47,578 nucleotides of DNA. Source: a virus. The notes under the pieces are model-generated. The model was not told where the DNA came from. It saw nothing but the letters and a program-made list of their open reading frames with translations, and ran no database searches. The first letter of the stretch is position 1, and each line of letters opens with the position of its first letter. The stretch lies in the IMG/VR virus record IMGVR_UViG_3300021067_000009, positions 1 to 47,578 of that record. One strand, given 5' to 3'. Positions 3,305 to 19,380 of this stretch are shown here, in pieces. The translations under genes were made by a program, and so were the position numbers.

Positions 3305-4564
3305 TTATAAATAATCCGCCCCCGTGCGGGAGGCCTCGAGCTCAACATAGTCGGGCGCGAAAAAGCGTGTGCGATCGCCCGCATCCCAAAGATTTGCCAC
3401 CAGCTGCCTTAAGCCATCGTGCTCACGAAAAGCCATGCTTCCTGAGCGGTAGCTCGAGACGGCCACGCGATCCTCCATGATGTTCAACACCTCGCCGGCG
3501 CGCGCGCCGAACACAATCCCATTCGTGGAGAACCACGCCACCGCATCGTATTGTGGCAGCTGGATCCCGGTATCGAACACCGCGCCATAAGGCAGCACAG
3601 AGCGCTGCTGCAGCGCCGGGGTGTCCATGCCGGTAAGAAAGTAGGTTTCATCGGAAGCCACAAAGAGCCCATCGCTCACGGCCTTCAGTACCGTGATGTC
3701 CTCGGGGAACATGATGTAGCCGCGCCGCCGCTTCACTAATCCGTAGCGAAGCGGCTCAGTCATCCACAGCACCCTTCCTTGCGCGATGTAAATCCGCCCG
3801 TTGAGCTCTTCAAGTAGCTGCCCGGGCGGCGGGGTAGAACCAAACTGGGTCTCGAGGCGAATCGTCGCAAGATTCGAGACGCGGGTAATTTTATGCACCG
3901 CGATCGAGGCGGGCGCGTCGATGAGCTTGTAAAGGCCCTCGCCATTGCAGTGCGAGACATAGATGCGCACGTGCGTGACGCCACTTGGCACGCCAGGGAA
4001 GTTAGAGAGCGCGATCGCGCCGCCTTCTGCAACCTCGACCACGCGCGCCAGGCCCGTTCCGGATTCCTGGCCCGCCGCGTCCAAAAAGGTGATCGCGACC
4101 TGGTACGTGCCGGCCGCGAGCTCACCGCCGCCGACCGCCGCGGCCGCGGGCTGCATCTGCGGGGAGGGGATCCCCCAGGGCTTGTCGATGCCATCTTCGG
4201 TGATGATCCCGTTGATGAGCCCATTGGTGTAGTAGGTCTGGCCGTTGAGATTGAGGTAGGCCATCTTGTAGGCGCCTACATTCAGCCGCACGAGCAGCGC
4301 GGCAAACGTGCCATCGGCGCGAATCACGAGTTCCTTCAGGTGTCCGGACTCGACAAAGAAGGTGCGCTTAGGTCCGCTCCAGAGCGAGCTGTGCTGGATC
4401 GAGCCTGAGTACACGCGCGCAGCCCCCTGGCGCACGCCGATTTTGCCGATGTCATCGATATCGATGTTCACCGCGCGCCGTAGCGCATCCGGCGGCAATG
4501 CATCGGACTGCAAGAGCGTGTTGAGCCCCTGACCAAAGCCCTCGAGTGTGACGGGCTTGGGCAT
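3305..4564 (-). CDS. Putative tail/propeller-like virion protein
   Basis: A 419-residue protein. The ATG at 4564 was chosen because it overlaps the TAA of the upstream gene; six more codons upstream would be open. The start (TLEGFGQGLNTLLQSDALPP, then NIDIDDIGKIGVRQGA) matches the opening of a phage virion family I recall as typically reading 'F-x-x-G-L-N ... LP ... N-x-D-hydrophobic-D-x-x-G-x-x-x-R-x-G'. Later parts contain repeated sheet-like segments, including AAGTYQVAITFLDAAGQES. It sits between a fibre-adaptor-like gene and virion genes, so a tail or neck assembly role is inferred. No enzymatic motif is evident. Confidence 0.6.
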   Translation of the reverse strand: MPKPVTLEGFGQGLNTLLQSDALPPDALRRAVNIDIDDIGKIGVRQGAARVYSGSIQHSSLWSGPKRTFFVESGHLKELVIRADGTFAALLVRLNVGAYKMAYLNLNGQTYYTNGLINGIITEDGIDKPWGIPSPQMQPAAAAVGGGELAAGTYQVAITFLDAAGQESGTGLARVVEVAEGGAIALSNFPGVPSGVTHVRIYVSHCNGEGLYKLIDAPASIAVHKITRVSNLATIRLETQFGSTPPPGQLLEELNGRIYIAQGRVLWMTEPLRYGLVKRRRGYIMFPEDITVLKAVSDGLFVASDETYFLTGMDTPALQQRSVLPYGAVFDTGIQLPQYDAVAWFSTNGIVFGARAGEVLNIMEDRVAVSSYRSGSMAFREHDGLRQLVANLWDAGDRTRFFAPDYVELEASRTGADYL

Positions 4565-4875
4565 TACGTGTCCTCGACCCAAAGATAACCCTCGGCTTCC
4601 ACGGTGTTGCCGAGAGAGGTAGCGACAATAAATGTCACCACGTACATCGTCCCGTTGAGGCCGGCGGCGATGCGCACCTGCGCAAGCTGACTCGAGGCGC
4701 TCGCGGATCCGAGGGTGAGCTCGCTCGTGGCGCTGCGCGCGCCCGAACTGGTATCAACCTTCTGCTGCGTAACGGAGCTGACCGACGAAATCGTCTCGCC
4801 CTCGGCAAGCCGGGGCGAGAAGTCCATATCGAACAGCCGCGACTCTGCAGGCTGCTTGCTACGTGTTTGCGGCAT
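4564..4875 (-). CDS. Small fibre-tail adaptor-like protein
   Basis: A 103-residue protein from MPQTRSKQPAESRLFDMDFS. The pattern 'FDMDFSPRLAEGETISSVS ... LGSASASSQLAQVRIAAGLN ... GTMYVVTFIVATSLGN ... EGYLWVED' fits the small phage fibre-tail adaptor family, a compact Ig-like sheet protein of about 100 residues. The start at 4875 lies 5 nt downstream of the previous stop; a longer frame would run into the upstream gene. It is coupled to the next gene by TAATG. The family assignment rests on remembered sequence pattern. Confidence 0.55.
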   Translation of the reverse strand: MPQTRSKQPAESRLFDMDFSPRLAEGETISSVSSVTQQKVDTSSGARSATSELTLGSASASSQLAQVRIAAGLNGTMYVVTFIVATSLGNTVEAEGYLWVEDT

Positions 4876-4880
4876 GGCAC

Positions 4881-5627
4881 TTACACAGTGTTGCCTGCCA
4901 CGCGCATCGTCACCGAGGTGTCGGCCGCGGCGTCCCCGGCTGCCAGGGTCAACTCGAGCCACACCGCTTGCGCCGCCCCCGCGGTGAGGTTCTGGGAGTT
5001 GGCGACGTTCTTCGCGTTCGAGTTGAAGGTGAGCGCGGGAGCGGTGAGGCGGTTGGCGACCGTGGTGGATCCATTGAGCGCCGCTTCCACGGCAAAGGCG
5101 AGCTTGCCGGAGGGGTCGGCGTTCTCCGATATCACCGCACTCGTGAGGGAGAGCGTGCCGTGGTTGTTCTTGAAAAAGATCTTTTCGTAGAACTTGCGCT
5201 CCGAGCCCCCAGCCGCGTCGGCTGAGGCGTTGTAGAAGGGGCGGCGGATCTCGAGCAGCCCCGGCTCAAAGGCCATGATGGTTACGTTGTCACTCGCCTT
5301 GCGCAGCGTCACGGTGCCTTCGGCCGCGCCATCGAGGATCGCTTTCAAGATGCGCTCGAAGCTGGTGGCAAAGTTCACCTGCGTGGTGCCGTTCAGGGTC
5401 TGGGTCTCGCTCACGAGCTCGCCGGCCGCATTACGCCCATAAACAGTCAGGTCTTGCGTGGTGTCGTCGGCGTCGGAAGAGACCACTTCAAGGGTGTCGG
5501 TGGCCGAGATATCGGTGAACACGTAGCGGCAGGTCGTGTCGATCGCGCCGCCCGGGTCGGCCGTGGTGTTGTCATTGACACGGGTGGCCGCGCCGTACGC
5601 CACGATATCGGATGCTGCAACAGGCAT
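4881..5627 (-). CDS. Putative virion structural protein, paralog of 2496-3278
   Basis: A 248-residue protein starting MPVAASDIVAYGAATRVNDN. A sheet-rich middle (TDTLEVVSSDADDTTQDLTV, YGRNAAGELVSETQTLNGTT) is followed by a C-terminal domain similar to that of the 260-residue protein two genes downstream. The start codon lies inside a perfect 8-bp inverted repeat shared with the upstream 18-bp element at 5649-5666, so translation initiation may be controlled by RNA structure. Its position after the capsid, connector and lysis genes suggests a tail or particle-surface protein. Confidence 0.6.
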   Translation of the reverse strand: MPVAASDIVAYGAATRVNDNTTADPGGAIDTTCRYVFTDISATDTLEVVSSDADDTTQDLTVYGRNAAGELVSETQTLNGTTQVNFATSFERILKAILDGAAEGTVTLRKASDNVTIMAFEPGLLEIRRPFYNASADAAGGSERKFYEKIFFKNNHGTLSLTSAVISENADPSGKLAFAVEAALNGSTTVANRLTAPALTFNSNAKNVANSQNLTAGAAQAVWLELTLAAGDAAADTSVTMRVAGNTV

Positions 5628-5752: not shown

Positions 5753-8602
5753 CTAACACGAGCCCGCGCACTCGGTCTCCCAGGCCTCCCCACCATGCTC
5801 CGCGGCCCAGGCGCCGGCCCAAGGCTCAGCCCGCCACTGGCTGTCTGACTCGCCCAGCTCGGGGTCCGCCTCCCACACACCGTTCCATGGTTCTGCGCGC
5901 CAGGTCAAACAATCTCCCTCATGCTCGGCGACCACTCCGAGCGACCCCCACCAATCTACCGGAATGCCGTGCTCGGCGCGTACTCCCAACCGCCACTCGA
6001 CAGGCAGCGGAGAATCTGCTTGCACGGTAGCAAGCTGCGTCCACTCGAGCGGGATTGCGATCGACGCGGATAGGGCGCTCACCCACTCGAGCGCGATCGC
6101 CGAGCTCACCGTGATCTGGGATGACCACTCAAGGGGGGCCGCGGCGGCGCCGGCAATGCCCTGCAGATGCTCGAGGGGAACGGCGATATCTCCCCGCAGG
6201 CCTCCTAAGCTGTCGATCAAAACAGCGCTATTGCTCGCAAGCTGCGCGAGCCACTCTGCAGGCACCGCAGCGTCACGTAGGATTTGCGAGGTCCATTCGA
6301 TCGGTAGCGGCGCGTCCGAAACAATGGCGATCGCGCCGCCCCACTCTGCAGGGATCTCGCTGCCCGCGTGGATCCCCTGCAGGTGCTCAAAGGGAACCGC
6401 ATGCGTGCCCGCGATCCCCGTAGTCCACTCTGCAGGGATGGTGGATCCAGACTCGATAGGTGCGAACCACTCGGCCAGAAGCGGCGCATCGGAATTAATG
6501 CCCTGCAAAAACTCGAGCGGTACCGCGGAGGCGTGCGCAATGCCGGCGCCGGCCTCGAGCAGCATGGCAGCGCCTGAGACGATCGCCTGCAGGTGCTCGA
6601 GCGGTATTGGCTGGTCGGCGGCAAACTGGGAGCTCCACTCCCCGAGCACTGCATTGTTGGCGTGGATGCCCGCGAGCCACTCCACGGGCGCGGCACTGCT
6701 GTGCGCGATGCCACTCAAGTACTCCACGGGCAGCGCCGCGGGGGCGGCAAGCTGCAGGCTCCACTCACCGAGGATCTCATTGGCGCCCTGGATCCCTTGC
6801 AAATACTCTACGGGGAACACATCCGCATGGAGGATCTCTAGCAACCACTCAAGGATGATCTGTGAGTTCGCGTTCAGGCCCTGCAGGTGCTCGACGGGCA
6901 CAGCCGCATCCGCGTTCAGCGCGCCGAGCCATTCCGCCGGCGCGGCAGCACTTGAATTAATGCCTTGCAAAAATTCGGCGTTGAGCGCGGCATCGATGTT
7001 CAGGCTTGCGAGCCACTCAATGAGCAGCGCGTGATCCGAATCAACGGTGTCAACTTCTTCCTCGGTGGCAAGCCACTCGACGGGGATCTCGCTCCCGGCT
7101 GCAATTGCCTGCAGATACTCAAGCGGCACGATCGCGTCGGCATTGATGCCCGCGCGCCACTCGGCCGGCAGAGTCGCATCAGCATCGATCGCGGTAGCCG
7201 CCAGCCAGTTATCGAGAACCACGGCGGTTGCTGTTTGATTGACCGCGATCCCGGGCTGACCTCCGGTGTAGGTAGTGTCCGTAACGCTTCCAAGTAGCGA
7301 GCCGTTCAAAGACACGGACAAGGAGCTGCCCGCGGCGCGAAACTGCAACACATCGCCGCTGGTCAGCGCACTCGGGAAACTGCCGGTCAGAAGGTCGGTA
7401 TCTACGCCGAGCGTGGAGATCCGTATTGCCCACGTCGTAGTAGAGGTGATTGCAAGAATATATCCGGTGCGCTCTTCGGACTCTGCGCCCTCGCCCTGGA
7501 AACGCACATACATATTCCAGAGGGAGGTGCCGCTGATGTACTCGACCTGCGTCGCCTGATCCGAGGGCATTGCGCCGCCGACCCAAATCGAGCCGTTCAC
7601 GCCGGAGGAACCAGCTGCCATGCGGTTGCTTGCGACCACGCCGCCGGCGGTCGTGGTGCGCAGCCAATTGGAGCCTAGCGCGCCATCGGCGCGGTTAAAG
7701 TCATCCGAGGCCGATTCGATCGGCGCCTCTTCGCGCCAATTGATCTGAAAGCTCAACCCAGAATCCGGGCCGTTCGTGCCCTGAGTGATCGAGAGCGTAT
7801 CGATCGCGCCGCTTGCGGACAGCACCTTATAGGCTTGCGCGATCGAGGAATCAGAGCCAGCGAGATTGCGCAGAAACTGCGGGCCCGCCTGGATCCACCC
7901 TGTGCCGGAAGGCGCGCTAAGCTGCACATCGTCCTGCACATACACCGCGACAAACGATATCCCCGATGAGCCGCGAAAATCCGGTGGCGTTATAGAGAAG
8001 TCGCCGGCTGCCTGCCCGACGAGCCGCACCTGCTCGAGGATCCAGCGCTTGCCCGTGGAGTTAGAGAACACAAAGAGGCCACCGGAGGTAGCCGCCCCTG
8101 AGTCCATATCGATCGCAGGATCTGCAGTCCATGTGCCGTTGAAGATGCACGCCCAGGCCTTCAACCCGCCGCTGGTGTGTGCAAGCTCTCCCACGGGGCG
8201 CCATTTTTGTCCACCCGCCTGAGTGACGGCAGCGCCCGAGAGTGCGGTCGCTGCGCGCTTGGTGCCGTACATGATGCACAGCTGCCCCTCGATCATGTTA
8301 TCGGGCGCATCGAAGGTGAGCGTCCCTGAGTAGGTATCGTTGTCGGCCGGGAACATCGCGTAGCCAAAGAGCCGGATACCTTGACCGAAGTCGATCGGAA
8401 AGACGCTACCGTGCGTGACATCGCGCACGTGTTCGAGAGGGATGGTGAGGTCAACCTCGATCGGGGTCGGTACGGCGATCGGCAGCGGGACCGCCGGGAG
8501 GTTCTCGGTAAAAGCGCTGTATCCATGGACGCCGGACAACGGCACCAGGGCGCCTGGCGGCGAGAGCTGATAGGGAAGCGCGTTTCTGCCGAGAAAGCGC
8601 AT
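5753..8602 (-). CDS. Giant repeat tail protein with 14-residue PxEW(L) repeats
   Basis: A 949-residue protein whose start is TAATG-coupled to the upstream gene. The N-terminus (residues 1-75) ends in two diverged copies of the repeat (PIEVDLTI, PLEHVRDVTHGSVF). Residues about 90-300 are unassigned (an adhesin-like part is possible). Residues about 300-475 resemble a LamG-like domain (SASDDFNRADGALGSNWL ... ILAITSTTTWAIRISTLGVD ... GQPGIAVNQTATAVVLDNWL). Residues 479-889 hold 28 full units plus a partial one, consensus P-[LVA]-E-[WHYF]-L-x-x-[IL]-x(3)-[AS]-x-[IV]. The C-terminus is Trp- and Cys-rich, with the motif WRAEPW twice and a final GSC. A surface fibre or adhesin role is inferred from composition and location. 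Confidence 0.75.
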   Translation of the reverse strand: MRFLGRNALPYQLSPPGALVPLSGVHGYSAFTENLPAVPLPIAVPTPIEVDLTIPLEHVRDVTHGSVFPIDFGQGIRLFGYAMFPADNDTYSGTLTFDAPDNMIEGQLCIMYGTKRAATALSGAAVTQAGGQKWRPVGELAHTSGGLKAWACIFNGTWTADPAIDMDSGAATSGGLFVFSNSTGKRWILEQVRLVGQAAGDFSITPPDFRGSSGISFVAVYVQDDVQLSAPSGTGWIQAGPQFLRNLAGSDSSIAQAYKVLSASGAIDTLSITQGTNGPDSGLSFQINWREEAPIESASDDFNRADGALGSNWLRTTTAGGVVASNRMAAGSSGVNGSIWVGGAMPSDQATQVEYISGTSLWNMYVRFQGEGAESEERTGYILAITSTTTWAIRISTLGVDTDLLTGSFPSALTSGDVLQFRAAGSSLSVSLNGSLLGSVTDTTYTGGQPGIAVNQTATAVVLDNWLAATAIDADATLPAEWRAGINADAIVPLEYLQAIAAGSEIPVEWLATEEEVDTVDSDHALLIEWLASLNIDAALNAEFLQGINSSAAAPAEWLGALNADAAVPVEHLQGLNANSQIILEWLLEILHADVFPVEYLQGIQGANEILGEWSLQLAAPAALPVEYLSGIAHSSAAPVEWLAGIHANNAVLGEWSSQFAADQPIPLEHLQAIVSGAAMLLEAGAGIAHASAVPLEFLQGINSDAPLLAEWFAPIESGSTIPAEWTTGIAGTHAVPFEHLQGIHAGSEIPAEWGGAIAIVSDAPLPIEWTSQILRDAAVPAEWLAQLASNSAVLIDSLGGLRGDIAVPLEHLQGIAGAAAAPLEWSSQITVSSAIALEWVSALSASIAIPLEWTQLATVQADSPLPVEWRLGVRAEHGIPVDWWGSLGVVAEHEGDCLTWRAEPWNGVWEADPELGESDSQWRAEPWAGAWAAEHGGEAWETECAGSC
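5935..7170 (-). repeat. 42-nt-period coding repeats (14-aa PxEW/PxEHLQGI units)
   Basis: 28 complete units and one partial unit run without interruption. All are 14 residues except one of 20 and two of 16. Units of type P-x-E-W alternate loosely with units of type P-x-E-H-L-Q-G-I, giving a weak 28-residue super-period. Short DNA blocks such as CTGCAGGTGCTCGAG-like stretches recur at HLQG-type units, so intragenic recombination could change the copy number. Confidence 0.85.
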
Positions 8603-9456
8603 TAGCCGTCCTTCACCACGTGCAGCTCACCGCGCATGGTCTCGGTGGTCGAGGTCGTGTTGGCTCTTCTAAGCAATACCCCGAGCGATGCCCCGTCATA
8701 CAAGCGCGGAAGCATTAGGGAATCAAGCAGCCCGTGCGTCTGCGTCGCTCCAAAGTTGCGAAAGCGCATGAACGTAATCGGGCGCGCGAGCACGAGATTG
8801 ACCGAGCCGGCGGCGGGGGGCGAGCCGCCAGCCGTGCAGGTGAATTCCTCGATCGATCGAATCCCCTTATCCCCGTCTTGCAGCGGAAACCAGACGGTGT
8901 TGCCTTCATTGAACTGGGATCCATACGTAGTCGTTCCACCGACGCGCCCGGCGGTGCCCGCAGAATTGGTGTAGGAGCTCAGCGAGAGAGTGAGGTCTGG
9001 TGCGCCAATACTTTTGTCTACGGACACCTCCCACCAGGCCTGCACCCCTTCCCCGCTCGTGTAGCGCGGCAGTGCAACACTGTTGACGGTTTGGGCGCTC
9101 TCCGTCGTGAGCGGCATGTTCACGCTCACCAGTCGATCGTAGATGAGAAAGACACCTTCCGTATCGAAAGAGAAGGTCCCGTATTGCACCCCAAGAGCTA
9201 TATCGACAAGGTGCTTGTGCACCGGATCGCAATCCTCGAATGCGATGCCCTCATTGACGTGTGCGGTGCCAGGTGAGGCGGCGCCATCTGCGCCGGGGCC
9301 CGGATACGGGCCAGTCAGACGCCACAGACTCCCCCACGAATTAAGATTGGGATCGTCGTCGTTGGTCCCGCGTCTTTTGTGGATCAGGGTCTCGAGTATC
9401 CCCTCTTGCGCGCGAGCAGAGGCAACGAGATCCGCGTAGGTTGCCCAGCCGCTCAC
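8602..9456 (-). CDS. Virion structural protein A of a tandem paralog pair
   Basis: A 284-residue protein with a GTG start (VSGWATYADLV). It shares an ordered set of motifs with the next gene upstream: FLIYDRLV, TVNSVALPRYTSGEGVQAWW, LSSYTNSAGTAGRVGGTT, PLQDGDKGIRS, LVLARPITFMRFRN and LPRLYDGASLGVL. This 'RYTxGEGVQAWxEV ... SYTNxAGTxGR' arrangement is familiar from tailed-phage structural genes of unknown role. No signal peptide or membrane segment was seen. It is TAATG-coupled to the giant repeat gene downstream, so it may form part of the attachment of that fibre. Confidence 0.65.
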   Translation of the reverse strand: MSGWATYADLVASARAQEGILETLIHKRRGTNDDDPNLNSWGSLWRLTGPYPGPGADGAASPGTAHVNEGIAFEDCDPVHKHLVDIALGVQYGTFSFDTEGVFLIYDRLVSVNMPLTTESAQTVNSVALPRYTSGEGVQAWWEVSVDKSIGAPDLTLSLSSYTNSAGTAGRVGGTTTYGSQFNEGNTVWFPLQDGDKGIRSIEEFTCTAGGSPPAAGSVNLVLARPITFMRFRNFGATQTHGLLDSLMLPRLYDGASLGVLLRRANTTSTTETMRGELHVVKDG

Positions 9457-9462
9457 GATTGC

Positions 9463-10266
9463 TTACCCCCAGGCGGTTTGGATCTGGCCGTAGAACGTTG
9501 GTGCGGTTGTGCTAGCGGCAAGGTACGCAAGCGCCAGGGAGGCGCCGTCAAACAAGCGCGGCAGCGATGCGACCTGCAGGATAAAGTCCCGTTCGTTGTA
9601 GATGTTTGCCTGGATCGGAAGGAAGGCAAGCGGGCGAATCAAAATCAGACTCACCGCGGCCGAGCCACCGCCCGATACGCTCACATTGATCGTGGAGACC
9701 GCGCGCACGCCCTTGTCCCCGGCCTGCAGGGGCAGCTGCACCAGCGTATCGACGTTGGTCGTGGCGGCTGGAAACGCCACCGAAGTGCCCGCGCGGCCGG
9801 TCGTGCCGGCTTGATTGGTGTAGCTGTTCATCGACACCGTGGCGGTCGAGCTGGTGACGGTCGTGACCTCGAGCCATGCTTGCACGCCCTCACCGCCGGT
9901 ATAGCGCGTGAGCGCGGCAGAATTGATGGTCTTATCGCCGGTTGAGTTGATCGACACGGCGCCGACGCCAACCAGGCGGTCATAGAGCATCAGGAGCGTG
10001 TTTTGCGTGGCGGTTGCGCCCAGGGAAAGCAGGTGCTTGAAGTCGCTCGCTTCATCCTGCAGGGACATGCCGGCGCTCGAGTAGGCCGCGCCTGGCGTGC
10101 CCGCGGGATCGCTTTCCGCGCCCGGATTGCCGGCCGCTTTCCAGAGCGAGTGCCAGGTGCCAGCGGCCTCGGGGCTCGATGAGGTTTTGTAGAACGGAAT
10201 AGCTTTGTATTTTCCGTTCTGCGTTATCTCAGCGATGATGTCGTCGTAGCTTGCGAAGCCGGCCAT
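9463..10266 (-). CDS. Virion structural protein B of a tandem paralog pair
   Basis: A 267-residue protein starting MAGFASYDDIIAEITQNGK; an open extension upstream would overlap the secreted-protein gene and looks non-homologous. Shared with its neighbour: LMLYDRLVGV, TINSAALTRYTGGEGVQAWL, MNSYTNQAGTTGRAGT, LPLQAGDKGVRA, LILIRPLAFLPIQANIYNER and LPRLFDGASLALA. The two genes lie 6 nt apart in the same direction, consistent with tandem duplication and divergence. Confidence 0.65.
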   Translation of the reverse strand: MAGFASYDDIIAEITQNGKYKAIPFYKTSSSPEAAGTWHSLWKAAGNPGAESDPAGTPGAAYSSAGMSLQDEASDFKHLLSLGATATQNTLLMLYDRLVGVGAVSINSTGDKTINSAALTRYTGGEGVQAWLEVTTVTSSTATVSMNSYTNQAGTTGRAGTSVAFPAATTNVDTLVQLPLQAGDKGVRAVSTINVSVSGGGSAAVSLILIRPLAFLPIQANIYNERDFILQVASLPRLFDGASLALAYLAASTTAPTFYGQIQTAWG

Positions 10267-10280
10267 GTGAATCCCCCGAA

Positions 10281-11219
10281 CTACTGCGCGGACAAGTTCT
10301 GCGGTGCGCTCGGCCGTGGGCTGACCGAGACCGACACAGCCGTTGTAGCCGATCCGCCCGCGCCCGTGCAGGTGATCGAGTAGCTTTGTGATGCGCTTAT
10401 CGGCGCAAGGATCAGCTCGCCATTCAGTGGACGCTCGCCTGCAAACGTTCCGCCGGCGCCGGTGCACGCGCTTGCGTTGCTCGATGCCCAGGTGAGTTTC
10501 ACCGTTACCGCTTCAATGCCCTCGGTGGGCGTGGCCGCCAGTGTCACGGTAGGCTGCGGGGGCGCAGCAATCGTTTTCGTTGCGATCGCCGAAAGCTCAC
10601 TCTCGATCTTCTCGAGGCTCACCGCGGTCACGGCGAAATACCATTTGCCAGGCGCGAGGTCCTCGACCGTGTAGGCCGTGAGCGTTGGGGCGATCGTGAA
10701 TCCAAACTTCTTTGGAGGCGTCACGGTGTCCCAGTACAGGTTGTACCCCAGCAAAGATACGGGGGTGCCGTCTGTATTGGTCGTGACTGGGTTCCAGCTG
10801 AGTTTGGTTTCGTTGTCGATGCCGATCGGCGCCGGCGTGCTCGAGCTCGGCGCCGGCAGGGTGCTCTTTTGCACGAAGGTGCCGTTCCACTTGGTGTCAT
10901 CCGCGGTCTTGCAGTCCAGGCCGTTGTTTTTCAGCAGCGAGCCGACCGGGCAGATGCGCACCGTCGCGGTGCCAGGCAGCGGGCCGTATTTCTTCCAGCT
11001 GCCGGCGGTGTTTGATCCTGTTGCCACCATCACGTCATTGTTGATATCGAGCCAGGGCTTTGTCCCGTTCGGACAGCTGGCAAAGGGCTGGGTGGTCTGC
11101 CCCTCGGTGGCATTGCTGCAGGTGAAGAGTAGTGGCTTTGTCGTCAGTTGCGCATCCACACAGGCGGCGAAGCTAAGCGCAGCGACGGCCAAAGCGGAGA
11201 TTAGAGTTTTCTTAAGCAC
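10281..11219 (-). CDS. Secreted protein with fibronectin III and Ig-like domains
   Basis: A 312-residue protein. The GTG at 11219 is preferred because AAAGGA lies 8-9 nt upstream and it directly begins a signal peptide (KKTLISALAVAALSFAACVDA); an ATG at 11255 would lie inside the holin-like gene and add a hydrophilic leader. The middle segment (TKLSWNPVTTNTDGTPVSLL, GYNLYWDTVTPPKK, APGKWYFAVTAVSLEKIESE) is a typical FnIII domain. The C-terminal part (VTLAATPTEGIEAVTVKLTW, CTGAGGTFAG, SYSITCTGAGGSATTAVSVS) is Ig-like with paired Cys. It sits directly downstream of endolysin and holin-like genes. Export to periplasm or envelope is inferred. It could be an adhesin or a lysis accessory. Confidence 0.65.
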   Translation of the reverse strand: MLKKTLISALAVAALSFAACVDAQLTTKPLLFTCSNATEGQTTQPFASCPNGTKPWLDINNDVMVATGSNTAGSWKKYGPLPGTATVRICPVGSLLKNNGLDCKTADDTKWNGTFVQKSTLPAPSSSTPAPIGIDNETKLSWNPVTTNTDGTPVSLLGYNLYWDTVTPPKKFGFTIAPTLTAYTVEDLAPGKWYFAVTAVSLEKIESELSAIATKTIAAPPQPTVTLAATPTEGIEAVTVKLTWASSNASACTGAGGTFAGERPLNGELILAPISASQSYSITCTGAGGSATTAVSVSVSPRPSAPQNLSAQ

Positions 11220-16802: not shown

Positions 16803-17048
16803 TTAGAAGCTGCCGGTGCGGATGCCGGACAACAAATCATCCTCGACGGAGCCTTGCTGCCCGGGCCAGTGAATGAGCCGGCCGCGCACCAGCGAGCAGC
16901 CGACGCGGCGCAGCTCCTCAACAAACCGGCGCGTAAGGCAATCAGGACAGCCCGGGGAGCCGCAGCTCTCAATGCGTGCACCGTCGCCCTTCTCGCGCTG
17001 GCAGCCATGACCGCCAACGGCCTCGACATCGATCACGAAATTACCCAT
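16803..17048 (-). CDS. Conserved small phage protein with Cys motif after portal
   Basis: An 81-residue protein (MGNFVIDVEAVGGHGCQREK ... CGSPGCPDCLTRRFVEELRR ... LIHWPGQQGSVEDDLLSGIR). It overlaps the portal stop by 8 nt. The 'VEAVGGHGCQR ... GCPDC ... FV..L...G ... HWPG....V.DDL..G.R.GSF' layout is one I recall as common directly downstream of portal genes. The four Cys plus His could bind zinc. Function is unknown. Confidence 0.65.
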   Translation of the reverse strand: MGNFVIDVEAVGGHGCQREKGDGARIESCGSPGCPDCLTRRFVEELRRVGCSLVRGRLIHWPGQQGSVEDDLLSGIRTGSF

Positions 17049-19380
17049 TTTGCTCGGCTCCTACCGCTTGTGGGGCGGCGTTAGTTTTCAAAGTGTCCGG
17101 CGGCGCCGCGGCGCCACCTTCCTCACCTGGCTCGCCCTCTTCTCCGGGCGGCGCGATCGCGGTGGGTGGCGGTGCGGTGGCGGCTAGATCCGTCGCGCGC
17201 TGCGCGTTCGGATCGGATGTGTGGAACGAATCGGTCAGGATATCGACCGCTTTGGCGAGAATCGGATTGCCCTGCAGGGCGGTGACGATCTCGACCGCCT
17301 TCGCCATCGTTTCCCCGAGCGCCACGGCCGAATCGGCATCGCCCTTGCGCGCCGCGGCCTCGTTTTTCTTGATCTCCGCGTTGCGCGCGCGCATGGCAAG
17401 CTGGCGCTCTTCCTCGGCTTTGCTTGCGGCCTCGAGCTCTTTGGCCTCGCGCTCCGGATCGTTCGGGTCGATCTCCCCGTTGATCTTGCGGATACGCTGC
17501 GCGATGACGGACTTGTTCTCGAGGTCCGAGAGCTCAAAGGCAAGATCGAGCACCTTGATCGCGATATCGGGCGGCTGCTTGGATAGGGTCTCCATCATCC
17601 GGTCGTACATCGCAAGGCGCATCGACTCGTGGAAGTCCTGTGTATCGACCACGAATTGGCTTTGGCACAGCGTGATAGGGTTCTCGATCTCGAGCACCCC
17701 GTTGTTCAAGGTTGGGTAGTTCACGCGAATCGCGTCGGCGCGGCCGCTCGCGCGCGTGAGGAAGAACTGCTTGGGCTCGGCGTAGAACTGCTCGACCAAG
17801 GATAGTTGCGACTCGCCCTGGTGCTGGATCGCCTGGCGCAGGTTATCGAAGAGCACCGCGGTGACGACGCCGCCTTGCTGCTGGCGGGCGTGAATGGCAG
17901 TGCCCGAATTGGTATTGGTCACTTCGCCGCGGTTTTCCTCGGTGACACCGGAGGCCGACTGCAGGAACGCCATGTCCTGCTCCATCAAGCGCACGTGCTC
18001 TTCGGCAAGCTCGAGGTTTCGCAGGATCTCCACTTCCGAGCCGCGCAGCTTCTTCAGCACACCATCCGGGCGCGCTGCCTCATCGATCGCCTCTTCCCAA
18101 TCGTCAAACGCATCCTCGTCGGCTATGAGCTGATTGACCGACAGCAGGAACAGCGCTTTCGATCGACGCTTGTTCAGATCCTCTTGCGGGTCGCGCATGT
18201 TGCGCACGGGCCCGTAGGGCATATTGTCGCGCGATCGCCGGTAGCCCCAGATCGGGGTGAAGGGGAATCGATCGTGCCGATAGGGTGAGGGCATGTCCTG
18301 AAGCATGTGCATCTCACAGATCACGGCGACGCGCACGCGCATCACTACCGCGTCATAGAGCGAGGCCAGGCCCGACTCGAGCACCGACTGCATATCCGGA
18401 TCCTTAGCGTCGTAGCGCGCGCCGTTGAGCGCCAGCACATCGCTCATCATCGAAGGATCCGTGACCATGTGAGGGCGCGCGCGCATGAATTTCACGCGCT
18501 CTGGTACCCGGTACCAGCACTCAATGAGCTTGTTGCGTGAGCGGCGGTTGCCGATGTTGAACGACTCGTCCATGAACGCACGCCCCGAGGCGTAGCGCGG
18601 CCGCGAGGTGCCCGTGCGCGAATCCCAGTACAGCGCGATCTGGCCGAATTCCTCGGCATCGTCCTCAAAGTGAAGAAGGTCATCGTGGCGCGCGGTCTGC
18701 TGGATCACGCTCGCCCGATCGGGAAACATGGCTTCGGCGACATCGGTATCGACCCATTTGACGCGAAACAGATATCGCGCATCGGATAGATCCGGCTCAA
18801 CGGATAGATGGTCGTACCACATCTGCCGCCAGTCCTGCCGGCGGGAGAAAAGCGGCTCATCGCGCGGGTCGCCTCGGATGCCATCCTCGAGCCAGCCCAC
18901 GCCCACTTTGACGGCATCGGCGAAGGCTGCCGAGCGGTGATAGTGGGCTTTGTTCACGTCCGATATGTACTTGAGCAGCTCCTCTTTGGACTTCGCCGGC
19001 TGCTGATCCCCGTCGGCTCGAGGATGCACCTTGAAGTCAACGCGGGTGCGCCGCTCGGTCCCTAAGATCCAGTTCACGTGCTGCGCGATCACGTTGAACA
19101 CCAAGGGCGCCTGGCCGCGCTCTTCGAGCACGGCGATATCGTCATCGTTCCATTGGATGCCGTCGTAGAAGTCCGCATCGAGCAGCATCTGCACGCGGTT
19201 ATCGGCGTGCGCCTGGCGCGTCTCGTACCACCAGTCCTCGATCTGGCGCAGACGCTTTTGGGCCTGCGGCGAATCGAGCGGGTGTTCGCCCGGGCGCTTC
19301 TGCAGCACACTCGGATCGATGGGCTTATTGCCCATGTCGATGCGCATGTTGCGCTGTTCGGGTCGAACCATCAGCTCCAT
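17041..19380 (-). CDS. Portal protein, P22-like
   Basis: A 779-residue protein, within the large size range of P22-type portals. Key segments: MLLDADFYDGIQWNDDDIAV, LEERGQAPLVFNVIAQHVNW, ILGTERRTRVDFKVHPRADG, GWLEDGIRGDPRDEPLFSRR, MWYDHLSVEPDLSDARYLF, RHDRFPFTPIWGYRRSRDNM, PYGPVRNMRDPQEDLNKRRS and NTNSGTAIHARQQQGGVVTA. The portal forms the dodecameric DNA entry ring on the head. The C-terminal 130 residues are a charged helical region (EREAKELEAASKAEEERQLA) ending in a Pro/Ala-rich tail, as expected for the barrel or internal tail. It is TAATG-coupled to the gene upstream. Confidence 0.93.
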   Translation of the reverse strand: MELMVRPEQRNMRIDMGNKPIDPSVLQKRPGEHPLDSPQAQKRLRQIEDWWYETRQAHADNRVQMLLDADFYDGIQWNDDDIAVLEERGQAPLVFNVIAQHVNWILGTERRTRVDFKVHPRADGDQQPAKSKEELLKYISDVNKAHYHRSAAFADAVKVGVGWLEDGIRGDPRDEPLFSRRQDWRQMWYDHLSVEPDLSDARYLFRVKWVDTDVAEAMFPDRASVIQQTARHDDLLHFEDDAEEFGQIALYWDSRTGTSRPRYASGRAFMDESFNIGNRRSRNKLIECWYRVPERVKFMRARPHMVTDPSMMSDVLALNGARYDAKDPDMQSVLESGLASLYDAVVMRVRVAVICEMHMLQDMPSPYRHDRFPFTPIWGYRRSRDNMPYGPVRNMRDPQEDLNKRRSKALFLLSVNQLIADEDAFDDWEEAIDEAARPDGVLKKLRGSEVEILRNLELAEEHVRLMEQDMAFLQSASGVTEENRGEVTNTNSGTAIHARQQQGGVVTAVLFDNLRQAIQHQGESQLSLVEQFYAEPKQFFLTRASGRADAIRVNYPTLNNGVLEIENPITLCQSQFVVDTQDFHESMRLAMYDRMMETLSKQPPDIAIKVLDLAFELSDLENKSVIAQRIRKINGEIDPNDPEREAKELEAASKAEEERQLAMRARNAEIKKNEAAARKGDADSAVALGETMAKAVEIVTALQGNPILAKAVDILTDSFHTSDPNAQRATDLAATAPPPTAIAPPGEEGEPGEEGGAAAPPDTLKTNAAPQAVGAEQNG

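What the first reader, a model, noticed from the sequence alone, without database searches (positions are those of the whole stretch)
5753..8602. Fibre-like protein built from 28 tandem 14-residue PxEW repeats
Units of almost invariant 14-residue length run without a break over residues 479-889, with two stray copies at residues 47-75 before a LamG-like domain. P-x-E-W and P-x-E-H-L-Q-G-I units alternate. A repeat this short, with conserved Pro, acidic and aromatic positions, would suit a beta-solenoid or an extended spike. The Trp/Cys-rich tail with WRAEPW twice may be the tip or an attachment point. I do not recognise it as a named repeat family.
Basis: partly seen in the sequence, partly recalled or inferred. 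Interest (0 to 1): 0.75.

Follow-up and report, generated by a model that had tools for sequence, protein, structure and literature searches.

The report
Phage fibre protein with 14-residue repeats
An uncultured short-tailed phage encodes a protein made mostly of 29 tandem copies of a 14-amino-acid unit, one of a large undescribed family whose gene almost always lies just upstream of the phage part that anchors tail fibres, so it is most likely the backbone of a host-binding fibre whose length is set by the number of repeats.

Summary
The repeat is real: 29 units of 14 residues at residues 473-888 (lag-14 identity 0.28 against 0.089 +/- 0.014 in shuffles), two more near the N-terminus, and a Trp-rich C-tail with its own 9-residue period. 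It matches nothing in Pfam, NCBIfam or the PDB; only phrog_6079 ("tail protein", no known structure) recognises the array. It is not isolated. DNA-pattern scans and an independent search with a neighbouring protein found over 25 uncultured-virus contigs with the same design, 5-39 units each. Of 23 loci carrying a homologue of gp77 (Pfam: phage GP4 fibre-tail adaptor), 21 have a strongly 14-periodic gene upstream of gp77 and the other two have weak ones. The repeats evolve fast; the period, the 9-residue tail and the position persist. AlphaFold2 found no fold for ten units as a monomer (pLDDT 33), so a self-contained beta-solenoid is not supported. Best reading: a fibre backbone anchored on gp77, comparable to GP4's "rope protein", with each unit a docking site or shaft segment. 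In GP4 relatives the gene between gp80 and gp77 encodes a different (20-residue) repeat protein that also ends in a 9-residue-period tail. Mechanism is inferred; no virion evidence exists for this lineage.

The parts
5753..8602 (-). Array (fibre-backbone candidate) gene, 949 aa
   Evidence: open frame, TAATG overlap with the upstream gene, codon-position GC like its neighbours
5939..7186 (-). 29 tandem 14-residue units, residues 473-888; consensus in this protein x-A-D-A-A-[IVL]-P-x-E-W-L-x-G-I
   Evidence: lag-14 autocorrelation, unit alignment, profile over 359 units of 13 proteins
5756..5938 (-). Trp-rich C-terminal tail, residues 889-949, 9-residue period, WRAEPW twice; proposed anchor
   Evidence: lag-9 periodicity, z 21 over 23 family members
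8375..8458 (-). Two N-terminal stray units, residues 49-76
   Evidence: profile scan
7265..7714 (-). Domain matching phrog_2804 (virion structural protein), residues 297-446; possible distal tip or lectin-like domain
4881..5627 (-). 248-aa beta-sandwich protein ('DIVAYGSA' protein), constant neighbour between array and gp77 in the podophage loci; candidate partner
   Evidence: synteny and 46-60% identity to six relatives; AlphaFold2 pLDDT 91
4564..4875 (-). gp77 homologue (PF23148, GP4 fibre-tail adaptor); start probably at the internal ATG
   Evidence: (E 1.3e-13)
3305..4582 (-). Tail nozzle / head-closure Hc3 homologue (phrog_8040; GP4 8jov_A; 26fb_K)
17041..19380 (-). P22/GP4-type portal protein
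   Evidence: (PF16510, E 5.5e-151)

Best explanation
It is the backbone of a phage tail fibre that is anchored, directly or through a neighbour, on the gp77 fibre-tail adaptor ring. Shown: 29 regular 14-residue units, a 9-residue-period C-tail, membership in a large uncultured-phage family, and near-invariant linkage of the gene to gp77. Inferred: the C-tail docks on the adaptor ring, the N-terminal domain points outward and binds the host, and the array is an extended rope-like chain in which each unit (hydrophobic-Pro-hydrophobic-Glu-Trp) docks one globular subunit or packs one step of a shaft, so copy number (5-39 among relatives) sets fibre length. It would work like the rope protein of phage GP4, which strings gp80 dimers into chain-like fibres on gp77.
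For: Unit regularity. An independent search with the neighbouring 248-aa protein gave 44 loci; 23 carry a gp77 homologue, and 21 of these have a 14-periodic ORF (z>5) 5' of gp77. In four loci it touches gp77 (-160 to +7 nt), in most there is one or two genes between, in four about 7 kb. The two others (L276, L290) have weak arrays. Of 721 ORFs tested, only 37 exceed z 6. Adaptor identity: PF23148. C-tails have period 9 in 23 array proteins (z 21) and in six proteins encoded between gp80 and gp77 in GP4 relatives (z 6.2). GP4 gene identities: 8jou holds 10 chains of the gp80 type and 3 of gp77. No monomer fold, as expected of a rope. Pro at the centre of an alternating hydrophobic stretch suits an edge strand that pairs on one side only. 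The description of GP4 fibres as gp80 dimers on a rope protein comes from my memory of the 2023 GP4 tail paper, which is not held.
Against: No gp80 homologue is found in the window or relatives, so a bead protein is not identified. The internal repeat of the GP4-type candidates is 20 residues, not 14, and a profile of the array tails does not pick out the GP4-type tails by letters; only the period and the gene position are shared. The GP4-type gene has no match among PDB chain sequences, so its identity as the rope is itself inferred. JC1 proteomics lists gp53 and gp55 but not gp54 (PMC9144972). The strict 14-residue spacing would equally suit a self-assembling shaft.
Confidence: 0.55

Rival explanations
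1. Self-assembling fibrous shaft: three copies wrap into a triple beta-spiral or similar trimeric spike, each 14-residue unit being one step, as in adenovirus fibre or PRD1 P5. No separate bead protein is needed.
For: Invariant 14-residue step across very different sequences, with inserts of only +1 to +3 between most units; alternating hydrophobics with a central Pro; a monomer prediction would fail for an obligate trimer.
Against: The conserved Glu-Trp and Asp positions and the absence of a regular turn Gly do not match the triple-beta-spiral consensus as I know it (memory, not tested); trimer prediction could not be run.
Confidence: 0.25
2. Monomeric beta-solenoid or other closed solenoid.
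For: Short regular repeat, many units.
Against: AlphaFold2 with 101 aligned rows gives pLDDT 33 and mostly spurious helices; from general experience solenoids are usually predicted with confidence.
Confidence: 0.07
3. Receptor-binding array: the units themselves bind host glycans or surface polymers multivalently, and gp77 linkage only reflects attachment.
For: Trp in nearly every unit (0.90 over 359 units); fast sequence turnover among relatives.
Against: The N-terminal domains are better receptor candidates; conservation of spacing rather than of sequence argues for a structural role.
Confidence: 0.08
4. Not a fibre part: an internal or chaperone-like protein of the tail module.
For: No virion evidence for this lineage; JC1 gp54 was not reported in virions (PMC9144972).
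Against: Tight and specific linkage to the fibre-tail adaptor in several gene orders; phrog_6079 is annotated tail protein.
Confidence: 0.05

Closest known systems
GP4/Bcep22-type gene between gp80 and gp77 (JC1_54, POI1126 gp16, PBC5 gp13 and others), my candidate for the GP4 'rope protein'
   Same: Gene directly upstream of the gp77 fibre-tail adaptor in the virion module; short tandem repeats over most of the chain; C-terminal tail of 9-residue period
   Different: Internal repeat about 20 residues, no PxEW motif, 143-291 aa against 210-1216 aa; a gp80 homologue is present there and absent here
phrog_6079 (tail protein)
   Same: Its profile matches the array in 14 of 15 searched records
   Different: The match is local (positions about 11-240 of 605) and I know of no described structure or mechanism for the family
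Adenovirus / PRD1 triple beta-spiral shafts
   Same: Repeats of about 15 residues, one per step of a fibrous shaft, with conserved Pro/Gly (from memory)
   Different: Motif and source differ; homology not tested, trimer not predicted
Aeromonas phage BUCT552 tail protein and phage 1.081.O tail sheath stabilizer, 14-residue C-terminal repeats
   Same: Exactly 14-residue period, tail-associated proteins
   Different: Different motifs (APYNLRSSVQAELL, SxEWDYQSVVDASY); the unit profile finds no unit in either

Membership tests
PxEW 14-residue array family (defined here) | Tandem 14-residue units matching the profile over at least four consecutive units | tested here: met
   29 consecutive units
PxEW 14-residue array family (defined here) | C-terminal tail with 9-residue period | tested here: met
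   lag 9 is the best lag of the window's tail; it is the only clear, non-low-complexity window ORF high in the tail scan
PxEW 14-residue array family (defined here) | Gene upstream of a gp77 homologue | tested here: met
   gp77 homologue two genes downstream, PF23148 E 1.3e-13
phrog_6079 tail protein | Profile match | tested here: met
   E 1.1e-5 in the genome-scaled search of the window; not listed for the window protein in the whole-library scan at E 0.1
GP4 rope protein | Sequence similarity to the GP4-type repeat protein | tested here: not met
   phmmer of JC1_54 finds no ORF of the window or relatives; tail profile not significant
GP4 rope protein | Position next to the gp77 adaptor gene | tested here: met
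GP4 rope protein | Binds a chain of gp80 dimers | not testable with these tools
   no gp80 homologue found; binding needs experiment
Beta-solenoid repeat proteins | Confident regular solenoid in prediction | tested here: inconclusive
   AlphaFold2 pLDDT 33, no regular geometry; low confidence does not exclude it
Triple beta-spiral fibre shaft | Trimeric spiral with turn per repeat | not testable with these tools
   no multimer prediction offered
LamG / concanavalin-like domain (residues 297-446) | Match to a named lectin-like family | tested here: inconclusive
   phrog_2804 only, E 2.4e-5; no Pfam model at E 1

The most novel reading that the evidence does not exclude
The array is a molecular ruler: each 14-residue unit is one docking site for a separately encoded globular subunit, so that repeat number fixes fibre length, and phages re-engineer fibres by adding or losing units. 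This rope principle would be shared by GP4-type phages (20-residue units) and by this family (14-residue units), joined by a common anchor on gp77.
Probability: 0.35. Interest if true: 0.75.

Novelty: new variant of a known kind. Interest (0 to 1): 0.55.

Why it matters
It names and delimits a widespread, undescribed protein repeat in uncultured phages and ties it to one structural part, the gp77 fibre-tail adaptor. If the rope reading is right, fibre length and valency would be encoded simply as repeat number, a testable rule for how phages build and vary host-binding fibres. It also gives an annotation handle (14-residue array, 9-residue tail, gp77 close downstream) for genes now called hypothetical.

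Tried and rejected
tblastn of the window protein against annotated phages found only Aeromonas phage BUCT552, on the strand opposite its gene: rejected as period-locking. BUCT552's sense repeats and those of phage 1.081.O also have period 14, but the unit profile finds no unit there. PF07022 (CI repressor) hits to about 20 residues of two relatives: rejected as spurious. GP4-type repeat protein against PDB sequences, single and profile: nothing credible. gp80 homologue in the window or relatives: none. Fold search of the 248-aa neighbour: no clear PDB match (Foldseek best E 0.002 at TM 0.18; best Z 6.0, which may be only a common beta-sandwich), and viral matches without named function. Profile of array tails against GP4-type tails: not significant. 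The GP4 tail-structure paper is not in the library.

Full report
Observation. The minus-strand ORF 5753-8602 encodes 949 residues. Residues 473-888 are 29 units of 14 residues, with inserts of 6, 2 and 2 residues between three pairs. Lag-14 identity is 0.28 against 0.089 +/- 0.014 in shuffles. Mean DNA identity between units is 45% and Tandem Repeats Finder sees nothing there, so the array is old and kept at the protein level, not a fresh DNA expansion. Third-position GC (0.74) and gene order support the minus strand; the 356-aa plus-strand ORF (5964-7034) is its antisense shadow.

Known families. Pfam and NCBIfam give nothing for the window protein; the PDB gives nothing by single sequence or by profile of 101 array segments. 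PHROGs gives phrog_2804 for residues 297-446, and phrog_6079, tail protein, matches the arrays of 14 of 15 searched records including the window.

Relatives. A DNA pattern for two PxEW motifs 42 nt apart, and a stricter triple pattern, found a set of IMG/VR contigs with long in-frame arrays. A profile over 359 units of 13 proteins reads x-x-D-[HSA]-[QVA]-I-P-[VI]-E-W-x-x-x-[LIV]; P, E and W occur in 89, 75 and 90% of units; unit starts lie mostly 14 residues apart, otherwise usually 15-18. No member was found among the 50,697 annotated phage records by tblastn of six family proteins, and the neighbouring 248-aa protein has none either, so the lineage appears uncultured.

Context. Eleven of 15 searched records carry a P22/GP4-type portal and seven the gp77 fibre-tail adaptor PF23148; several others are short fragments. 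In the window the order is portal, major head protein, structural genes, array, 248-aa protein, gp77, nozzle. To test linkage without using the repeat, I searched with the 248-aa protein: 44 loci, some redundant. Of the 23 with a gp77 homologue, 21 have an ORF with lag-14 z above 5, always 5' of the best gp77 hit: touching it in L287, L288, L293 and L302, mostly one or two genes away elsewhere, about 7 kb away in four. The remaining two, L276 and L290, hold weak arrays. Only 37 of 721 tested ORFs exceed z 6. Unit sequence varies from IPVEW to LPLSW, IPxSH and VPFxxL, but the period stays 14.

C-terminal tail. The last 60 residues of 23 array proteins share a 9-residue period (z 21.1 against shuffles), in forms such as RGTVWVIDE-RGTLWALPA, DRTFLTSTK-DRTVVFVPR or, here, WRAEPWNGV-WEADPELGE. 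Scanning all ORFs for this period alone brought up array proteins that the unit profile had missed.

Comparison with GP4. Burkholderia phage JC1 and related phages have gp80 (JC1_53), one gene, then gp77 (JC1_55). The identities rest on 8jou, which holds ten chains of the gp80 type and three of gp77, and on PF23148; that the ten-chain protein is the one called gp80 is my reading of the copy number. The gene between encodes a protein of 143-291 aa with 20-residue periodicity and a C-tail of period 9 (z 6.2 over six proteins). From memory of the GP4 tail paper, not held, GP4 has five chain-like fibres of gp80 dimers linked by an elongated rope protein and anchored on gp77. I infer that the gene between is the rope. 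The window protein fills the same place with a different repeat. Letter-level similarity between the two kinds is absent, so this is shared position and design, not demonstrated homology.

Structure. AlphaFold2 on ten units gave pLDDT 33 and pTM 0.20. This does not support a stand-alone solenoid and fits a chain that folds on partners or as an oligomer. The 248-aa neighbour is predicted with confidence (pLDDT 91) as an all-beta protein, without a clear relative of known structure; it is the most constant neighbour and the first candidate partner.

Verdict. Observation confirmed with small corrections. Fibre interpretation supported by linkage, solenoid not supported. Shown: repeat, family, linkage to gp77, tail period. 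Inferred: anchoring, rope-like or shaft-like function, copy number as length. Not shown: presence in virions, any binding partner.

Noticed in passing
window 8602-9456 and 9463-10467: Two adjacent genes upstream of the array are paralogues (36% identity, E 2e-38); not conserved in the relatives inspected.
   Followed up: partly
L313:2992-3501 (Agrobacterium phage Atu_ph08): An open frame with 20-residue repeats and a 9-period tail just upstream of gp77 is not annotated; a gene on the opposite strand (PP899_gp30) is annotated over part of it.
   Followed up: partly
L248:2311-3546 (phage 1.081.O): 42-nt coding repeats of a tail sheath stabilizer (14-residue SxEWDYQSVVDASY) are annotated as CRISPR spacers in the record.
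   Followed up: no
L002:11852-16282 (Aeromonas phage BUCT552): The tail protein ends in a 14-residue repeat APYNLRSSVQAELL; same period, different motif.
   Followed up: partly
L264:6008-8971 (Pseudomonas phage F116 p51): The gene directly upstream of the head-closure/nozzle gene is a 987-aa protein with loose repeats of about 22 residues (PxGxxSxxxG); possibly another fibre-backbone design.
   Followed up: no
L052:986-4633 and L252:11194-14256 (array proteins): Pfam PF07022 (CI repressor HTH) hits about 20 residues of the arrays, in L052 above its cut-off; likely a source of misannotation.
   Followed up: no
L279:4794-5423 and 6048-7994: One locus carries two array proteins with different C-tails and two gp77-profile hits.
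   Followed up: no
window 5964-7034, plus strand: A 356-aa ORF antisense to the array is a shadow of the coding repeat.
   Followed up: partly
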